Below, one piece after another: positions 9,001 to 61,446 of a stretch of DNA of 64,000 bases. Every line of letters begins with the position of its first letter. Positions within the stretch are counted from its first letter, which is position 1. Where the stretch lies: assembly GCA_014885115.2 (NCBI GenBank), contig WKLE02000787.1:31549-95548 (forward strand), in the 5' to 3' direction. A program made the position numbers and the translations under genes. The DNA comes from Asterionellopsis glacialis. Its lineage: Eukaryota > Bacillariophyta > Plagiogrammaphyceae > Rhaphoneidales > Asterionellopsidaceae. The notes under the pieces are model-generated. The model did not search any database, was not told the origin of the DNA, and worked only from the letters and a program-made list of their open reading frames with translations.

Positions 9001-12000
9001 ACAATGACTGTCTTGAAATAATCCAGTCGTTGGAAGAAGTGAATCAGTGCTCGGTTGCACAAGCACTTCTTGGGGTTGGACGAATTTGTATTGCTACTGA
9101 AAATTTTGCTGAAGGTCTATCGGTTATCGAAGATGCAAAAGCTTCCTTTACTGAGGTACTTGGTCCACACCATTTAGAACTCGCCACTTGCTGGTATACC
9201 CTGGGAGTGCTGCATCGATCAATGAAAAATCACACAAAGGCGAAGGAATGTTTTAAGATGTCTTTGCAAATTGGGCGGAGACACCTTGACAAGAATAATT
9301 GTGATTTATATGAATCCCTGCAGAGCTTAGGAGCATGCCTGTCGGATCTCCAGGAATACATTGATGCTCGTAATTACCTAGAGGAAGCCTTACAGATTGG
9401 CATTGCAAATGAAGGGCCAGACGGAAAAAATGTCGGCGAGACACACCGCTATTTAGCTCATGTCCAGCTTCAAATTGGCGAGCTCTCGGCTTCTCTTGAA
9501 CACTTTGAGCGGTCAATTGCAATAGGAATGTCGTATCTTGGATCATACGAGCAAAGTAATTTGGGGTCTGAGCAATTCGCAAAACTGAATGCTTGTTTTG
9601 AAGCTGCAATACCTTTGGCGAAACCAGAAAACGACCCAGAACGACTAGGGAGATTATACTACAGACAAGGAATTCTACAAACTATGAACAGACTGCATAA
9701 AAAGGCCCTGAAATCCTTCACGGAGGCCCTTCGTTTGTACAAGACTTTTTATGGTGACAATCATGTGAGTACAGCAAATGCTTTATTCAACATAGGAGTT
9801 TGTCTGAACGAAACCGGAGACCCGGATAGGGCTGTGAAATGCCTTTCTCAAGCATTGCATACCACCCAGTCTCAACTTGGCGATGATCATATCGATGTGG
9901 CAGACACTTTACAGCAGCTAGCTGTATCTTACAAATTGAAATCAGATTTCGAAAAGGCACTTGAATATTGTAATCAAGCAATGCGAAGACGGAAAAATAA
10001 AGAGGATTCCGCGTTTGCGGCCCTCCTAGATTTAGACGGCCAGCTGGTGAGTAAAACTGACCTCTTTCTATCGCCCGGAAAATAGATACACACTGACAAT
10101 CGTTACATACCGTTTCTTTGATATTTCAAACCTCAATCTATGTTCAGAATGTTGAATGCGAAAAATACGACGAAGCAGAAAGGTGCTTCCGCGAGAGCAT
10201 TCGCGTCAAGCGAAATTTACACGGAGGCGCTCATCTTGGTGTCGCAGATTCACTTTTTAGCCTTGGCTACGTGTACGAAACGTTTCAAGAAGATTTTTCA
10301 AAAGCACTTCGTTGCTACGAAGAATGCCTTTACATTCGCAAGTCGAACGTTGGAGATACTGGTGTAGACGTAGCCAACTCATACTTGCACTTAGGTTGCG
10401 TTCATGCATCGCAAGAACATGAAACAAAAGCAATTTTTTGTTTTGGAAAGGTCATCATGATTTGCTCCGCAGAAGACCATGAAATGGGAGCGATCGTGGA
10501 CGCTGCACTTGTGAACAAGGGCCAGGTATTGTATTCACAGGGAAAGTGTGAAGAGGCACTTGAATGCTTTCAGAAGACGCTTGATTTGCGGAGAAAATGG
10601 ACCGGCAAGGAAGAGGACGAAATTTCAGAAGAAAACGCAGACGTTTTCCGTATGAAAGCACTGGTCTTCGAAAAATTGGCAGAAGAGGAGGAGACTATTT
10701 GGACATTAAATTTAGCTTTGGCCATGTACAAAGCCACGCTTGGAGACGACCACTTGCGCACTGCAACCACTCTGCAATTGCTCGCTGATCACTATCTTGG
10801 GAAGAATAATCACGACAAAGCATTTTCATTTGCAAGTGAAGCGCTCGAGATTAGAAAGAAGGCGCTTGGGGACAGCCACGAGGATACTGGCGATTCCTAT
10901 TTTGCGATGGGAACGGTGCATTTTGCAAGGAACGAATTCGAACAAGCCCAGCCCTTCTTCGAGGCATCATTGTCTGCTTTCATTGAGAGTAGAGGAGAAC
11001 TCCACATTACTGTCGCAGATTCTTTGTATTACATCGCCTGTATTCATGGTAAGTTGCTTTCAACCTTGTTTTTTGCCTTGCTTTGGAGTGGTCTCATTAA
11101 AAATCACCTTTGAACTTTCTTGGCCTGCAGAGCTGAACAAAAATACGGAGCAAGCAATCCAATGTTTCCAAGGATCTTTATCGGGTCGTCAATACAACTT
11201 GGGAAATGAACATGTATTAGTTGCTGACGTATTTTTCAAATTAGGTATGATGCATCAAATACAAGAAAGTCTTGATCTAGCGGCAGGGTGCTTCCGAGAG
11301 TGCCTCAAGATAAGGATCAAAGTTCTACCCGAAGATCACATTGACATTGGCGATACGCACTTTTACTTCGCCGGTGTGCTATTTGATAACGAAAATTCAC
11401 CCTCCAACGAGGAAGCCACCCAGCATTACATTGATGCAATCCGTGTTTACAATAAACATCTTGGGGAGAATCACGTTTCGGTTGCAAAATGTCTTGCGAG
11501 TCTTGGAAACATTTTCGAGGACAGCAACGATTTGGTCAAAGCTGGGAGTTGTTACCAACGGGCAATTGCCATTTTCGACCAGAACCTGGATGAAGATCCT
11601 TCGAGAGAGGATGTTAGTAACTTTACACTTGAAGATGACTATCAAGCTCTCGCTGGTGCCTTGTTAGACTGGGCGACGTACCTTGACCGTAGTGGACAGG
11701 ACAGTGCTGCAATGAAGGCGTACCACCGGGCTATGAAATTGTACAATGTACTACTTGGCGCTGATCATGAAATCATGGCTACCATTCTTTGCAACATTGC
11801 CAATCTCCTCGGAAGGCAGGAACGATACGATGAGGCCATGTCCCTCTTCGATAAGGCCCTAAAAATGAGAGTTGCAAGCTTCGGCGAGGATCATCCCTCA
11901 GTAGCAGATTTGTTACTGAACTGCGGGGTACTGCATAGTAAGAACTGTGAATACGAGGATGCTATAGCTACGATCGAGGAAAGTCTACACATCCGTCGTT

Positions 12001-53488: not shown

Positions 53489-54445
53489 GTTGATGCAGAT
53501 TTTAAAAACGCTCCGCGTGAAAGAGAAACGGCTATGATCAGAATGTGGCAAAAAGTGCTCCAAAACCGTAAAAAATATATATTTTGGAAAATGTCTCCTG
53601 TTGTTCTGGCATCGAAAAAATGAGAGACCGCATGGCTTGACCGTTGCTTTATTCTTTTGCAACGTTGTTCGACTTCGTTGTACAAGTAGAAAATATGAGT
53701 ACAGGTAATACCTGGTACTGATACAGAATATGTAGGACAGCCGGGACTTACGTACATGTACCTACCATCTACGTGCAACCATTGGAGAGTCGTTACTTTC
53801 TTTGGTTTCGGATCTACTAGAGGTTACCGACCTTGGTACCCATTATTATTCAACAATTGCAGATTATACTGATGTACACCATATTACCAATCACCTGAAG
53901 TAGAGCTAGTACTATTTACAACGTACGCTAGCTAATCGGAAAAGTCACTGGATAGATGTCACAAACAGTATTAAATAGTCGATCAAATGTACTATAACAG
54001 GTACAAGGGATAATAATCTACCAAGTATTATGTATTCAAGATATTGTACCCATGGTCCTGAAAAATACGTACATATATTATTTACTGTATCAGGTATTTA
54101 CCAACCGCTTTCTCTTAAAATTACAAGTTTTCTAACATGGTATTTCGTGGTAACCACTGACGACTCCGAATATTTCTCGTATAATAAAATATGCAGGTAT
54201 GCATCAATTTATGGTACAGTACCTGGTACGCTGGAGTCTAGGAACTCTCTCTAGAGGATTACCAGGTACCAGGTACTTAGTACCAAGTAGGACTGCGAAC
54301 TTGGTTCCAAGAAAGATGTTTTGAACAGGTAGTAGTCCATCCAAGCCCTACCAACATGCTGTCAGTCATGCGGGATTTGACCTGAAATTCTGGAATTGGT
54401 GTTCTTCACTCCAAATCCCGGCCTCCTCTTCAGTTAACCTACACC
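53489..54445. promoter_or_regulatory. Divergent promoter region rich in ACCAGGTAC motifs
   Basis: 957 bp between divergent starts. Contains GTAATACCTGGTACTG (53706), ACAGGTAC (53997), GTACAGTACCTGGTACG (54216) and TACCAGGTACCAGGTACTTA (54261-54280). CTCTCTCTAGAGG (54247) is also present. No gene is seen. A 74-codon frame at 54030 is not convincing. Confidence 0.6.
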
Positions 54446-55771
54446 ATGGACGACAACAGCTGTGTGCATACTACTCGTAAGCAACAACAACAAATGCCCC
54501 TGGAATGTGCATGTCAACATCATCAGTCATCATCAACCCCTGTGCTATGTCCCGTATGTGTTGATCGGGCGTTAAGATCTCAACTGGACCGTCATCACAT
54601 GGCGTTGCAAGAGACGGCGGAGGCGAAACAAGAATGTGCTCGTCGGCTAGTGGAATTGCGGTCTGGTTCGGAGGAAAGTCCTTTCAATCTGTCGGAACTC
54701 GTGCAGGAGTCGCAAGTATTAAAAGATAGGCTAGGATTTTTACGGCAAGAATGTGGATCTCTTGCAGTGAAAGTAGCCGCGCAAGTCGTAAAGAACGATG
54801 AACGTCAAGTCGGAAGAACTGAACCTTCTGCTCCACGACAGAAGTTGCACAGGCTTTATCAAGCTCTCTGCGATCCAGTAGATGGGGCATTGACAAATTC
54901 AATCGTACATACGACGGGACTTGTAAGGGTGGCAAGATACCAATGGGCGGTCCAAGCTTTTACTATCCACCGTCTCGATGTAGGATTGGAAAACCATGAT
55001 GATGACAACCGAAATCCGAATCGTCGTCCGAAGGGAATTGGAAAAATTGGTGGTCTCCCCTTGCCTCATGCAGGCCCTGAATTGTACGGTGTTCTTCCAC
55101 CACAAGAGTTGATATCTGCACTGAGATTGGTGGCCTCCCTGACGTGCACAGTGGCACGGTGTTTGGGAATAGATCTTCCGCATCCGATTTTATTGCGACC
55201 GCCGGGAATGAACGGAAAGAACCGCAACGATGATTTGTGCGATATTGTTCACACAGTGAAAGTAGAAACAAAAGAAAAAAAAGACCATATGACCGGAAGA
55301 CAAGAAGAAAAGCAACAGCCTGTGGGATCGTCATCCACAGCTTCTTTGATGACACTCGTTGGTGCAACATCTGCATGGGGTCGATCTGCCAAAAACGCTC
55401 TTCTTGCTCGGGCTACGGGAGCCCTTGAAGAGGATGTCACTGCTATGCCTCCTCCTTCCATGGAACCAGCCCTAGTCAATCGGCGATTACTACATGCAAC
55501 GTGTGTTGTTTTGTCTGAAGACTCTAAGTCATCCTCGCTTTACACTTTGTCAAAAGAAACCATGTTGGATGATCAGTTTGCGATTGGACTACAATTCTTG
55601 CAGAACAATGTTGTCGCACTTTGTATTCGATCGGGTGTTCCTGTTGATAATTTGTGGCCAGCCGAAGCATTGCTACTGAATCTATACGCATTGTGGCTAC
55701 ACTGCCAAGATCAAATCGTTGAAATTGTCTATGGCACCACGGGTGGGCAAGAAAAGGAATCTAGAAAATGA
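54446..55771 (+). CDS. ATG14/UVRAG (Vps38)-like PI3-kinase complex subunit, tentative
   Basis: A single exon of 441 residues. An N-terminal cysteine cluster (Cys21, Cys23, then LCPVC at 35-38) is followed by a coiled coil rich in Gln, Glu, Arg and Leu (about 50-130). A C-terminal folded region follows, with KIGGLPLPHAG, PPQELISALRLVASLTCTVA, RCLGIDLPHPILLRPP and DDQFAIGLQFLQNNVVALCI. The order Cys motif, coiled coil, then 'LP...L...L..YV..L...LA..L.I.LP.PI' is that of the Atg14/UVRAG family. These bind Beclin and Vps34 in autophagy or endosomal sorting. Similarity is visible only at motif level, so the call is tentative. No signal peptide or membrane segment. Confidence 0.5.
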   Translation: MDDNSCVHTTRKQQQQMPLECACQHHQSSSTPVLCPVCVDRALRSQLDRHHMALQETAEAKQECARRLVELRSGSEESPFNLSELVQESQVLKDRLGFLRQECGSLAVKVAAQVVKNDERQVGRTEPSAPRQKLHRLYQALCDPVDGALTNSIVHTTGLVRVARYQWAVQAFTIHRLDVGLENHDDDNRNPNRRPKGIGKIGGLPLPHAGPELYGVLPPQELISALRLVASLTCTVARCLGIDLPHPILLRPPGMNGKNRNDDLCDIVHTVKVETKEKKDHMTGRQEEKQQPVGSSSTASLMTLVGATSAWGRSAKNALLARATGALEEDVTAMPPPSMEPALVNRRLLHATCVVLSEDSKSSSLYTLSKETMLDDQFAIGLQFLQNNVVALCIRSGVPVDNLWPAEALLLNLYALWLHCQDQIVEIVYGTTGGQEKESRK

Positions 55772-55805
55772 AAATCTTGTAGAGTTTATAAATATGTTTT
55801 TATAG

Positions 55806-57425
55806 CTACCAATAGTCTCTATCACCTTCGCCTGTCGCTGTTTCTATCTGGGCCTCTCTGGAGCTAGTGCTTGTTGCTACATTCTGATTAGCTATGATTT
55901 CCCTTTCTTTATTCCGATTTGGTGTCGACGATCCCCATACTAGTATCATCCCATCCTTCCCACCAGATATGAGACCTAAGTTGACCTCATCAACGGCTAA
56001 AGATGTCACACTATCCAAGTGGCCCTCAAGTCTTTGTGCCGGCTTTCCTCCTCTATCAAGCGAATATCCCAAGATGGCATCCCCGTGACCAATCCAGGCC
56101 ATCATAGATTTAGCTGATGGTGGTATCACTATTGGAATTCGTTTATTGTGTTTCGAAACAGCGGGTTGGTTCGGTCTTGTCCCGAAGAAAAAATGGGTTG
56201 GAACCAACCGACCCGACCTCAAATCCCAATGGTACAAATTTCCATCTTTTCCAGTGGTGACAAGAAACTGCCCATCAGGGCAGAAACTGAGTGCTGATAT
56301 AGCACCACCATGCGATTGAACTGTGCTTGATTCTACAAGCGAAAAGTTGCTTGGAGCTATGGCCCCGGATGCTGTTCGTTTCCCAGTATTTTTTGAAGAT
56401 TGTTGTCTCTTTCTTAAATGTCGATAAGAGGACGAGTATTTTCCAGCAGACATAGACAGATCAGGGGAAGCGTCACGGTCTAATATAGTGGTACAAGCAT
56501 TCGAACCGGATTTGCGAATATCCCAAAGTGCAACTTTTAAAAAGAAACCATCAAACGTAGTATGATACAGGAGAATAACCCAAGACAAAACAAACACCAA
56601 AATGATGAGCAACCGTAAATACAAAGAAGTAAAACCATGCTTTGCATGTGCTACTGAAAAAAATACGAACAAGATTCACTCACCGGCTCCATCATTAGAC
56701 CCGCTTGATAAAACATATTGGCAGGTTGGTGACCACTGAACTGCCGTGACATTTTGACGGTGTGCCACCAAAGTGTGCGAAGAGGCACCCGAGCGTAAAT
56801 CTACCAGCTTCACTGCACTACTGGATGCACTACTGGAAGAACCTCCCACTGCCAAGAGTGATTGAGATGGCCCACTCATATCAAAACAACAGCATTGTTG
56901 AAATGGACGGTACATCGCCACTGGTACCATTCCATTGGTATCCCAAACTAGCATAGACCCGTCGGAACCTGCTGATACAAATGCTCCAGTGTCTACGGGG
57001 TACCACTGTGCCGCTACCACTGAAAGTGAGTGCCCCGCGGGTATTTGTAACGAATTATCTGTACTGGGTGGTGCCCGAACTGATTGTGCCACAGCCTTGT
57101 GGATTTGCCGACCATGACCGGTATTGATTCCATTGCCAACGCTACCACCGGTCAAGTGGTGCTCCGTTCCCCAAATCGATAAATCGTAAATACTGATGGT
57201 AGCATCGCCACTACCAGCTAGCAAAAATCGTCCTTCAGCAATATCAAGACTTGAGATTTTACCGTTGTGGGACGAAGCAATCTGAGGGCTCTCTAGCAAT
57301 TCAAAGTATTCTTTCAACGCTGCAACTCCGTTCCAGAATCCCTGACGGCGGACTCTTCCTTCTGCGCGAGCATTAGTCAACAAGGTAAGAGAACGAGGAT
57401 AGTTTTTGTGAGATTGACGGGGCAT
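55806..57425 (-). CDS. ERCC8: CSA/ERCC8-like WD40 DNA-repair ubiquitin-ligase adaptor
   Basis: Minus-strand exons are 57425-56684 and 56533-55806. A 150-bp phase-1 intron (donor GTGAGT, acceptor TAAAAG) restores DGAVALWDIRKSG and gives 489 residues. WD40 blades run from GKISSLDIAEGRFLLAGSGD through AQWYPVDTGAFVSAGSDGSM, VKLVDLRSGASSHTLVAHRQ, TAVQWSPTCQYVLSSGSNDG and LSFCPDGQFLVTTGKDGNLY to LEGHLDSVTSLAVDE. Blade order, the 'QWYPxDTGxFxSxxxD' segment and 'LVxHRQxxxAVxWSP' are typical of Cockayne syndrome A. That protein is the CRL4 substrate receptor in transcription-coupled nucleotide excision repair. A Ser/Lys/Arg-rich insert separates two blades. Assignment among WD40 proteins is good but not certain. 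Confidence 0.8.
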
Positions 57426-57982
57426 TCTTTTTCAAATGCATAATGATGCTTCTATCTTATCTGAGATGAGTCGGCTACGAAATATACATAGAACACCATT
57501 TCGTATAATAACAGTCAGAGCTCAAGGAGTAGACTCTGGACTGTAACATGCATGGCATGTCTGGAAATGGTATCTTTCGCCGCGAGCTTGCCATAGTCAA
57601 TACCTGGCAGAGTAGTCTCACGGCTTTTGACAAAGTCCCCTACCTACTAGTAGTGATGGACTTACGAACACGCTAGTACTAAAGAATTATTACTAAAAAT
57701 TATTAAGGATAATGGGACTTACTCAGGAAACAAGCAAATGTGTTGCACTGACTAAGTCCCCTTTTATCTCTAATTTGCATCTGCTGAAGTACCAGGTACG
57801 TAGTCTACTGTTAGGTCATGTCAGTCAATAGAGCTTACAACAGTCGTAAAGTGTTGCAGTAAATCATGTCTAGCATTGAAATTGCGAATACTTTCCAACT
57901 TTGGAGATACGAACAAGACTACTTTTAAAATATTTAAGTTTTAGTTTATAATCATTACAATGTCTAGCAATATACGGATAAA
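57426..57982. other. Intergenic spacer between CSA start and GST 3' end
   Basis: About 560 bp, including the CSA promoter. One TACCAGGTACGTAG word lies at 57790. No gene is seen. Confidence 0.5.
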
Positions 57983-58071
57983 CTTGATTGAAACAAACGG
58001 AGCATTGCTTCAGAGTTCTGAATAAGTTGATTAAGGGGTCGTCACTCGTCATTACCTGTTTGTTTGTCAAG
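57983..58071 (-). promoter_or_regulatory. Candidate SECIS element in the 3' UTR of the GST gene
   Basis: Read on the minus strand, 65 nt after the stop. An outer stem CTTGA/TCAAG (58071-58067 with 57987-57983) leads to a perfect 8-bp helix AAACAAAC/GTTTGTTT (58065-58058 with 57998-57991). An internal loop follows, then a quartet-like pair TGAC/TGAA (58051-58048 with 58012-58009, giving G.A and A.G pairs). Then comes stem GAGT/ACTC and an apical loop that starts CC. The spacing ATGA-N10-CC-N24-TGAA fits the eukaryotic SECIS consensus in its CC variant. The upper stem has few Watson-Crick pairs, which weakens the call. Confidence 0.4.
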
Positions 58072-58135
58072 ATCATCATGTATTGTACTTGTCACGAATG
58101 TCATTAAATGGCGCCATAGATGTCATACTTATTTC

Positions 58136-59017
58136 TTACTTCATGGAAGCAAACCGTTCTAACATTCTATTTATACCCTGCATGGTTTGTTCTTTAGATA
58201 GTTCAGTGGTTTTGACAGAGGGCCGTCCTAAAACAGATTCAATCCAAAGTTTGGTACGTGTCAAATTGTGTTCCTCACACATTTTGATAGGATCAATATC
58301 AGTACAACTAGGTAAAACATTGCACGCACGTTGAACGAAAGGTGCAATGTTGCACTCTGCAAGTGAAAATTGTTCTCCAAATAGAAAGTGAGCATCACCA
58401 CGGTTGCTAGCACCCATTTTTTCGAGAAATGTGTTCACACTATATAGACCTTTTTTGAATTCCTCAATAGCTTGTTCCAGTTGTTGCTGTTGTTCTTCTT
58501 TATTTCCATCTCCTTCAGCTCTCATTGCGGCAGCAGCACGCACTATGGGAAAGTACGAAAAGCTTGATCCACAGAGTTCCGTAAAAAGTCTCATGGTGGC
58601 ACGATCATCAATATTGGATGGCAGTAAATCTGACTCTGGAAATCGTTCTGCAAGGTATTGTGCCACAACTAGACTTTCAGTTAGAACCAAAGTAGAGCCT
58701 CCTTCCTCACCCTGCGTAACTTCTAAAACAGGAACTTTAGCTCGAGCATCTGGAAGTGGATTAGCCTTGGCATATATGTCACAAAACTCTTTAGGTTTGT
58801 TCTGTAAATCAATTAAGACTGTTTCATAATTTGGTATCGATCCACTACGACAACACTCTTCGAGGGCAATCCAAACCCTTGCAGCGTACGGTCACGATTT
58901 CGATGTATGTAAGCGAAATGATGCCGATGACGGCTGCTTGTTTATGGCTGTCGCGGCAATCAACGTGCAAAACAATAAGAACAAGATCGAGACTGATAAT
59001 GTCGCCATGGTGGCCAT
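58136..59017 (-). CDS. Glutathione S-transferase with in-frame TGA at the catalytic position (probable selenoprotein)
   Basis: Read on the minus strand from the ATG at 59017 (a second ATG is at 59008; both have A at -3 and G at +4), with the TGA at 58892-58894 decoded. This gives 293 residues and no intron is needed. The start MATMATLSVSILFLLFCTLI is a signal peptide. FRLHTSKS, the TGA codon (residue 42), then PYAARVWIALEE is the beta-1/alpha-1 active-site region of omega-like GSTs, where the family has CPYA or SPYA. AKVPVLEV and LTESLVVAQYLAERFPESDL follow, completing the thioredoxin fold. A helical C-terminal domain follows with FGEQFSLAECNIAPFVQRAC. A SECIS-like hairpin follows the TAA stop. 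A nonsense-mutated pseudogene is the alternative, but the rest of the frame is intact. Confidence 0.75.
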
Positions 59018-60418
59018 GTTCTATGGCGACTATTCGTTCGGCCGTAGACAGTGATAATTTAATAGGAACAAGGGAAAAAATGAGATGTCAGAGATGTCTC
59101 CGACGAGTACGTACTTCACTCGTACTACTAATATCTAGTCTACTTGCTTGATTTTTACCAACCCCATTTTTCGGTAAAGAAGTGCATATCCTGAACACTA
59201 GTTCGCAGAAAATCTGATAAACTCGCCTTACCTTTTCACAACATTTCCTGTAGGTTTTCCGAAAAATGGCCATCATAACAACAAAACTTCTTCTGTACCA
59301 AATAACCATGCAATGATAATTCATTTCGTTTATTATTTGAAGCCTATTGTTATACCATAATTGTATTATTTTACAACCAAATTTGTAATGAGATTGTGTC
59401 TTCTTTCTATACAAAAGCTGCACCAGTAACACTAGCTGGTTGTTCACTGTTTGCATGCGATATCAAAACAAAGTTTTTATGATGAAGTGGTGAGGTTTAT
59501 GATTCATGTGACTAAAAATACTTGGTATCATATCTGAATCAATTTTAATGCAGATGGAGCTCAATACTTGATTTGTAGTGAACTGGTTGTCGAGTTGACG
59601 AGGCAACCACGAATGGATATATATATCACGGATAAACTACACAATGCCATACTTTACATTATATCTTCATCAATTTTGGACCATTTGACATTTTTTTTGT
59701 TTTAGAAACGATTGCCATGAGGTGTAGATATGGGGCAAATACTTGTATTGTCTAGCTGATAATTGAGCTTTCGAGACAAACGTAGCATTGATGAGAATAG
59801 AAAGGAAGAAAAAGAAAGTGAAGATCTTTCTTCTTTTTTCCTCCCTTTTCTGCTCTTTCTCTCTCTCTCTTCCCCTTTCTTTCTCTAGTGCCTGGGGTAG
59901 GAGCTTTTGAAATCGTTTAATAAATGCATCAATACACTGTAGGAGCAGCATTTTTGCCAACTTCCAACATCAAGGCTCAGAGTATTATATACTGATTGAC
60001 TTCCATTATATTCGGACAAAACCATTTCTCGGAATGGATGACCTTCAAGGAAGAAAAAGTAAGTAATGCTACCTACAGGGACGTCTGACGGCAAAGATTT
60101 CATACTATAAACGTTGAAAGACCCCAAGTCTTAGTTCCTGATGTTCTTTGGAAATTCAAATACTGTGGGTAGTGAACCAAAAAGTACCTGTACAATTATG
60201 ATAGATTCAATTTACGTTGTTTGTCGTTTTTTAATGGTACAACTTTGCAGTACGACAGGACATAGTCCAAATTTTGTAATCTAAAAGAGCCACAGAGGTA
60301 TTCTGCTTTGGTTTAAGTTGAAGTGACATGTAATGAAAGTACATTTGCCGCGAGTATAGTTGTAACACAGCTTAGAAAGACTTTGCAACAAATTCAGAAA
60401 ATAAGACAGAACTTTCTA
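59018..60418. other. Intergenic region, no gene supported
   Basis: About 1.4 kb, AT-rich, with a long polypyrimidine run (59820-59887). Short minus-strand frames at 59088-59456 and 59670-60127 have low-complexity or unrecognisable products. The GST promoter should lie at its left edge. Confidence 0.5.
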
Positions 60419-60645: not shown

Positions 60646-61446
60646 CTATATCTCACTTTTTTTCTCTTCTTCGCTATCGTCACTTCCTTCATCCTGGCGA
60701 ATGTATTTCTCATTCTCTTCATCGAAAATTACTTTCACAGATGCCTCCGTAGATTTGGCCTCTTTCATGGTTCGGACAAAGTTGAGGGCCTTTTCAACAA
60801 TCTCAATGTGTGCTGTGGATGGATCTTCGCAGTTTGCACCCTCTGTTGCTTTTTGGAGCATCTCGTAAGCAACTTTTGCCTTGAGAGCCTTGATTGACGC
60901 AATCAAACATGGATGAAATCGATCTGTTTGGGAGACAACATCATCCATTACCCACCACTTGCTCTCGTGGTACTCATCCGGGTCCAAAGCTGGGACACCT
61001 CTGGCTTCTTCTTCCCTTGTCAGACAAAGAGAATGAACCGTCGATATATCTGCAGTTCCGTTTGTTGATGGCTTTTGCTCTCTGTAAGACCAAACCATGG
61101 AATAGTTAGCCACAACTTCGTAACGTGATTCTGGGAAGTCTAATCCAAGTTCGCGTTTCAGATTACGCCTCGCTGCGGCGATTGTTGTATCTCCTGGTCG
61201 GCTCCTTCCACCAATGAACCACCAGTCTGGCTGAGGTTTAACCTTCCTTTTACCAAGAAGCACTTTTTTGCCGTCGGATGATACTACAAGCACATCACTG
61301 CAGCCCTTGACAAGAGCGTCTAATGCCAACCCATACTCACGTTCCGGCAAAAACACGCGCTGAGGAGTAAAAGGTCCAGTTACAAACTGAGGAGTGTCAA
61401 ACATTGTCCAGGTATTGCAGAGTGAGTGATAGCACTTGATGTACAA
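60646..61446 (-). CDS. Nudix hydrolase-fold protein with degenerate Nudix box
   Basis: A single minus-strand exon of 266 residues; an internal ATG at 61404 (MFDTPQFVTGP) is an alternative start. SDVLVVSSDGKKVLLGKRKV and DWWFIGGRSRPGDT lead into ARRNLKRELGLDFP, which has the shape of the Nudix box. Compared with G-x5-E-x7-REUxEExGU, the first E is D, and R-E-U-x-E-E-x-G-U reads R-N-L-K-R-E-L-G-L. Two of the usual acidic metal ligands are therefore missing and one Glu remains. Later EYHESKWWVMDDV fits the domain end. The C-terminus is acidic. Hydrolase activity is doubtful; it may bind nucleotides or act on an atypical substrate. No targeting signal is clear. Confidence 0.75.
   Translation of the reverse strand: MYIKCYHSLCNTWTMFDTPQFVTGPFTPQRVFLPEREYGLALDALVKGCSDVLVVSSDGKKVLLGKRKVKPQPDWWFIGGRSRPGDTTIAAARRNLKRELGLDFPESRYEVVANYSMVWSYREQKPSTNGTADISTVHSLCLTREEEARGVPALDPDEYHESKWWVMDDVVSQTDRFHPCLIASIKALKAKVAYEMLQKATEGANCEDPSTAHIEIVEKALNFVRTMKEAKSTEASVKVIFDEENEKYIRQDEGSDDSEEEKKSEI

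What the first reader, a model, noticed from the sequence alone, without database searches (positions are those of the whole stretch)
58136..59017. GST with UGA exactly at the catalytic residue: likely a new diatom selenoprotein
Seen: one in-frame TGA (58892-58894) separates a canonical GST body from an in-frame upstream stretch. That stretch supplies a strong-context ATG, a signal peptide and the missing beta-1 strand (FRLHTSKS). The codon sits where GSTs have the Cys/Ser of CPYA/SPYA. Known: Sec commonly replaces catalytic Cys, and stramenopile algae have selenoproteins. TGA is an ordinary stop elsewhere here (14532, 55769), so the code is not reassigned. An annotation pipeline would truncate this gene to a product without its active site.
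Basis: partly seen in the sequence, partly recalled or inferred. Interest (0 to 1): 0.9.

Follow-up and report, generated by a model that had tools for sequence, protein, structure and literature searches.

The report
Probable selenocysteine GST, missing SECIS
A probable diatom gene for a glutathione transferase carries a UGA "stop" codon exactly where related enzymes have their catalytic cysteine, and its closest relatives appear to keep that codon too, so the cell probably inserts selenocysteine there; the RNA signal normally needed for this could not be found next to the gene.

Summary
On the minus strand, 58136-59017 reads as one GST of 293 residues with a single TGA (codon 42, 58892-58894). 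Read through, it gives a complete GST fold (pLDDT 91.7) with codon 42 at the N-cap of helix 1, the omega-type catalytic Cys position.

The TGA is probably conserved. Of 139 homologues examined, 23 cover the position: 14 Cys, 9 "W". One W record was demonstrably translated with TGA as W. Of the other 116, 115 begin after the codon and one avoids it. The 43-row clade around this gene shows no Cys.

The genome has tRNA-Sec, SepSecS and five other genes with in-frame TGA at positions recalled as Sec sites. A selenocysteine GST is the best explanation.

One defining feature was tested and not met: the five sister genes have SECIS-like hairpins (MsrA's is weak), but the GST 3' flank scores at background. 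The element may be divergent, displaced or lost.

Sec-GST is already a listed algal and bacterial selenoprotein family, so this is a new member of a known kind.

The parts
58136..59017 (-). Read-through GST reading frame, 293 aa plus TAA, one in-frame TGA
58892..58894 (-). In-frame TGA, codon 42, at the catalytic Cys position of the omega-type GST active site
   Evidence: N-cap of helix 43-57 in the model
58946..59017 (-). Putative signal peptide (residues 1-24), assigned by eye; helix 4-23 at low confidence in the model
   Evidence: translation; no signal-peptide program available
58895..58918 (-). FRLHTSKS (residues 34-41), overlapping strand beta-1 (model strand 33-38), upstream of the TGA
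58631..58912 (-). GST N-terminal thioredoxin-fold domain (GST_N_3, residues 36-129), interrupted by the TGA
58325..58477 (-). GST C-terminal domain core (GST_C_2, residues 181-231)
58136..58594 (-). 152-aa ORF that an ordinary ORF caller reports; lacks the active site
57426..58135 (-). 3' flank up to the next same-strand ORF; no SECIS-like element above background
58039..58104 (-). Unconvincing SECIS-like candidate (ATGA, 7 bp, ACGA); best ATGA/GTGA-core candidate of the energy scan and best of the loose scan, not above background
57314..57379 (-). Hairpin with a non-canonical TTGA core inside the downstream WD40 ORF; more stable (-17.0) than the best of 60 shuffles (-13.4), but at background in the scoring scan (19.0); judged not a SECIS
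55806..57425 (-). Downstream WD40-repeat ORFs (two ORFs) that bound the 3' flank

Best explanation
A Cys-type (omega/DHAR-like) glutathione transferase whose catalytic residue is encoded by UGA and read as selenocysteine by the cell's Sec machinery. Shown: the intact gene around one TGA, a family in which the position is Cys or 'W' (shown to be a TGA translation in one record), and the presence of tRNA-Sec and SepSecS in this genome. Inferred: that the other W are TGA, that Sec is really inserted here, and that this goes through a SECIS which these scans do not recognise. Also inferred: that the enzyme works through a selenolate that forms a mixed selenenyl-sulfide with glutathione, giving thiol-transferase or peroxidase-like activity in the secretory pathway, rather than classic conjugation.
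Against: No SECIS. My scan scores the five sister genes at 26-35 and the GST at 21; 239 of 400 background segments reach 21. A looser scan gives 194 of 200 background segments at or above the GST. The best score anywhere in 54000-60000 (minus) is 22.5, at 54527-54582. The DNA of the W homologues could not be read, so TGA is proved in one record only, and there at a W other than codon 42. Within the gene's own flank type (HSSKS-type) no Cys homologue was seen, so the Cys comparison rests on the sister groups. The selD model found no match in the genome. No transcript or protein data for this species.
Confidence: 0.75

Rival explanations
1. The family is a Sec-GST, but this copy has lost its SECIS and now terminates at UGA: a gene at the start of decay, making only a 41-residue peptide.
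For: No SECIS-like element above background in the 3' flank, while sister selenoprotein genes have SECIS-like hairpins.
Against: The rest of the frame is intact: no second stop before the TAA, the invariant GST positions of the alignment are kept, high-confidence fold. It is the only match to this protein in the genome (4 candidates scored).
Confidence: 0.13
2. UGA is read through at some rate without selenium (near-cognate tRNA), giving a Cys, Trp or Arg protein.
For: The TGA is followed by C, a context recalled as leaky. No SECIS found.
Against: The codon sits at the catalytic Cys position and alternates only with Cys in the 23 homologues that cover it. The genome has Sec machinery.
Confidence: 0.05
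3. Sequencing or assembly error at a normal TGC/TGT codon.
For: One base would suffice (inference); reads were not available.
Against: Nine homologues carry W at the codon and 115 of the 116 others begin after it; 0 of 43 rows in its clade show Cys.
Confidence: 0.02
4. The TGA is spliced out, or translation starts downstream and the product is a short GST_C-only protein.
For: The ORF caller gives such a product, and 115 of 139 homologue records begin after the codon.
Against: Invariant Pro43 follows the TGA directly; the bases before it are GA, not AG, and the first AG downstream would remove codons 42-47. Starting downstream drops beta-1 and the active site, which the full-length homologues keep.
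Confidence: 0.05

Closest known systems
Sec-containing GST of algae (one of 42 algal selenoprotein families; PMC7539508)
   Same: GST family with a Sec form and widespread Cys or other homologues; the passages read mention it in specific Mamiellales and, fused to MsrA, in Emiliania huxleyi.
   Different: The passages I read do not name a diatom Sec-GST; the figures and supplements were not seen. I could not compare sequences. The gene here lacks a recognisable SECIS.
Bacterial Sec-GST from Sargasso Sea and GOS metagenomes (PMC1088965, PMC2398784)
   Same: GST family (COG0625) with Sec and common Cys homologues (table passages).
   Different: Bacterial, with a bacterial SECIS inside the coding region (recalled). 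A scan of bacterial and archaeal genome contigs with two peptide patterns found no relative of this family.
Omega-class GSTs (Trametes GSTO, human GSTO1) and plant DHAR
   Same: Fold, and the catalytic Cys position (SKSCPYAARV aligned with CPFAQR).
   Different: Cys, not UGA; about 20-27% identity in the structural matches; the signal peptide of the gene here lies outside the aligned range.
Engineered seleno-GSTs (reviewed in PMC9944854, passages read)
   Same: Sec in a GST active site gives glutathione peroxidase activity, which suggests what the natural enzyme may do.
   Different: Made in the laboratory by chemical or auxotrophic substitution at the active site.

Membership tests
Eukaryotic selenoprotein | In-frame TGA inside an otherwise intact conserved frame | tested here: met
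Eukaryotic selenoprotein | TGA aligned with Cys or TGA in homologues, with conserved flanks | tested here: met
   23 of 139 homologues cover the codon: 14 Cys, 9 W. That W stands for TGA is shown for one record, P0122, at another of its W, and inferred for the rest.
Eukaryotic selenoprotein | SECIS element in the 3' UTR | tested here: not met
   GST score 21, within background (239 of 400 segments reach it); five sister genes score 26-35, with 1 to 40 of 400 background segments reaching them, MsrA being the weak one. In a looser scan GST 18.5 (194 of 200), MsrA 24.5 (69 of 200). The Rfam scan is uninformative: Rfam also reports no SECIS in four control loci nor SECIS_1 in the genome.
Eukaryotic selenoprotein | Sec machinery in the same genome | tested here: met
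   tRNA-Sec, SepSecS. selD model: no match. EFSec, SBP2, PSTK not tested.
Eukaryotic selenoprotein | Sec physically present in the protein | not testable with these tools
   needs 75Se labelling or mass spectrometry
Cys-type (omega/DHAR-like) GST | GST N- and C-terminal domains and fold | tested here: met
Cys-type (omega/DHAR-like) GST | Catalytic Cys (here Sec codon) at the N-cap of helix alpha-1 | tested here: met
   codon 42 just before helix 43-57; aligned with the CPFA Cys
Omega class proper | Class assignment by phylogeny or activity | tested here: inconclusive
   best omega 23.0, tau 22.8, DHAR 22.6, tied within 1 Z unit; no class-level tree was built

The most novel reading that the evidence does not exclude
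Selenocysteine is inserted into this GST without a canonical SECIS: by a strongly divergent, distant or unconventional recoding signal, in a genome where five other probable selenoprotein genes carry SECIS-like hairpins, within a GST clade (43 rows here) that keeps UGA and shows no Cys form.
Probability: 0.15. Interest if true: 0.75.

Novelty: new member of a known kind. Interest (0 to 1): 0.5.

Why it matters
Gene callers hide this family: of the 139 homologue records examined, 116 lack the active-site stretch and 9 carry W there. If it is a selenoprotein, diatoms carry a probably secreted, selenium-dependent GST clade with Cys forms in sister groups, a natural counterpart of laboratory-made seleno-GSTs. 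It would also add a test case for what a diatom SECIS must look like, since five sister genes have hairpins and this one does not.

Tried and rejected
SECIS searches. Rfam on the 3' flank gave no SECIS at E up to 10, but it also reported none in four control loci, and SECIS_1 found nothing in the whole genome, so this is uninformative. Home-made scans differ in rules. In one search a TTGA-core hairpin at 57314-57379, inside the WD40 ORF, was more stable (-17.0) than the best of 60 shuffles (-13.4); it scores 19.0, within background, has a non-canonical core and lies in a neighbour's coding frame, so I set it aside. The energy scan did not rank the hairpins of the two GPx genes and was not used as evidence; there the GST best (-6.8) is weaker than the background median (-10.2). 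The scoring was drafted after looking at GPx, SelT and MsrA; only PDI is an independent control. The background was drawn from the window and from loci that include the controls. In one search the MsrA top candidate is not the one. A GGA-core variant reached 18.5 at best. The pattern ATGAYGGC..GCCTGA had 11 genome matches against 3 for the reversed control; 3 of the 11 are the GPx and SelT hairpins from which it was drawn, and none lies on the GST contig.

Relatives by DNA. Viral contigs and bacterial/archaeal contigs gave none, so the codon of the W homologues was not read in DNA.

Rejected: intron, sequencing error (see rivals), code reassignment (TGA ends other ORFs). AhpC-TSA_2 (SelU-type) matches had no in-frame TGA, 3 of 3. 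Of 46 thioredoxin matches two had a TGA; the one on C386 looks like an exon end rather than a Sec codon. The selD search gave nothing; its first look had no candidate, so this is weak. Of 4 matches to the tRNA-Sec model, ARAGORN calls one tRNA-Sec, one tRNA-Ser and one tRNA-Leu; the fourth was not scanned. The quick tree was replaced by the careful one, whose bootstrap had not fully settled; P0122 and P0071 were left out, and P0123-P0140 came later. The third protein search scored only 8000 candidates and listed 120 of 293. The notebook calls the WD40 gene CSA/ERCC8-like; that name is recalled and no call bears it out.

Literature: searches. PMC7539508: abstract, sections 5 and 14 and passages; PMC2375036: section 11 and passages; PMC1088965, PMC2398784, PMC6627142, PMC13188914, PMC7435645, PMC9944854: passages only; all others: listing only. 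The 2013 Aureococcus selenoproteome paper is not held.

Full report
What is there. The minus strand of 58136-59017 reads as one frame of 293 codons with a single internal TGA at codon 42 (58892-58894), a TAA end, and an in-frame TAG two codons before the ATG. Pfam finds GST N- and C-terminal domains above their cut-offs. Ordinary ORF calling yields only the 152-residue C-terminal part.

Is the TGA conserved? Three protein searches were run (120 of 162, 16 of 16 and 120 of 293 hits listed). They give 139 distinct homologues. Twenty-three cover codon 42: 14 have Cys and 9 have W. Of the remaining 116, 115 start at residues 48-116. The last, the Amphora coffeaeformis model, replaces the residues just before PYAQR with unrelated ones. 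W occurs with two kinds of flank: HSSKS-type, as in this gene (6 rows), and FNSGS-type (3 rows), where Cys is the other choice; no Cys row has the first kind. P0122 offers a check. Its tail is frameshifted, and the stretch FWIVRFVK fits a shifted reading of the family's FSELCGSSSF only if its W is TGA. So that record was made with TGA=W, and the W at codon 42 is best read the same way. For the other eight W records this is inference; their DNA could not be reached. In a careful tree of 120 rows, the 43-row clade that holds this gene and the two MMETSP transcript proteins (support 100/99) has 6 TGA-type rows, this gene included, and no Cys row. Elsewhere Cys and W rows mix, with at least two changes forced by well-supported branches.

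Can the genome do it? The same genome has a tRNA-Sec with anticodon TCA and SepSecS. It also has in-frame TGA in 2 of 3 GPx matches, 1 of 3 Rdx (SelT-like) matches, 1 of 10 MsrA matches and a PDI-like exon with WUGHC; that these are the usual Sec sites is recalled. A selD model found nothing. EFSec, SBP2 and PSTK were not sought.

The missing piece. A SECIS-like hairpin is the top candidate in the 3' flank of each of those five genes (scores 32, 30, 35, 26 and 29.5, reached by 5, 6, 1, 40 and 6 of 400 background segments). The GST 3' flank reaches 21, a value that 239 of 400 background segments reach. With looser limits the GST is at 18.5, reached by 194 of 200; there MsrA (69 of 200) and one GPx (13 of 200) are weak as well. 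The best score anywhere in 54000-60000 on that strand is 22.5, at 54527-54582. One TTGA-core hairpin inside the next gene (57314-57379) was unusually stable but scores at background. The controls are few and the score was drafted on most of them, PDI being the independent one. I therefore take this as a real but not fatal negative. Rfam fails on the control loci as well and says nothing.

Alternatives. A GT-AG intron cannot take out the TGA and leave the invariant Pro43, because the bases before codon 43 are GA, and the first AG downstream would cost codons 42-47. A sequencing error is hard to square with the family. Loss of SECIS with incipient decay remains possible, but the frame is intact and the genome search found no second copy.

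Prior knowledge. GST is among 42 algal selenoprotein families; the passages read name Mamiellales and E. huxleyi (GST-MsrA fusion) and say that diatoms hold 20-44 selenoprotein genes (PMC7539508). The 16 selenoproteins listed for Thalassiosira pseudonana in 2007 did not include a GST (PMC2375036). Bacterial Sec-GSTs are known (PMC1088965, PMC2398784, PMC13188914). Engineered seleno-GSTs have glutathione peroxidase activity (PMC9944854), which supports, but does not show, a peroxidase- or thiol-transferase-like role here.

Verdict. Most likely a Sec-GST (0.75): a new member of a known kind, with an unresolved recoding signal as its most interesting feature.

Noticed in passing
L013 (G000:C1197:11492-11539 and 11727-11774): The SelT-like (Rdx) gene has two similar SECIS-like hairpins about 235 nt apart in its 3' flank.
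   Followed up: partly
L073 (G000:C418): A PDI-like exon with WUGHC (in-frame TGA) and a SECIS-like hairpin about 160 nt after its stop.
   Followed up: partly
window 59164-59178 and 59255-59269: Inverted repeat with 15-nt arms, 76 nt apart, upstream of the GST start; no function assigned.
   Followed up: no
window 54446-55771 and 60646-61404: Neighbouring ORFs match ATG14 (autophagy) and NUDIX domains in Pfam.
   Followed up: no
G000, whole genome: Rfam SECIS_1 finds no element in a genome with at least five probable selenoprotein genes, so the model probably misses SECIS elements of this lineage.
   Followed up: partly
P0052 (public record): A Nitzschia inconspicua Cys form of this GST is annotated with an unrelated-looking C-terminal extension, 439 aa in all.
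   Followed up: no
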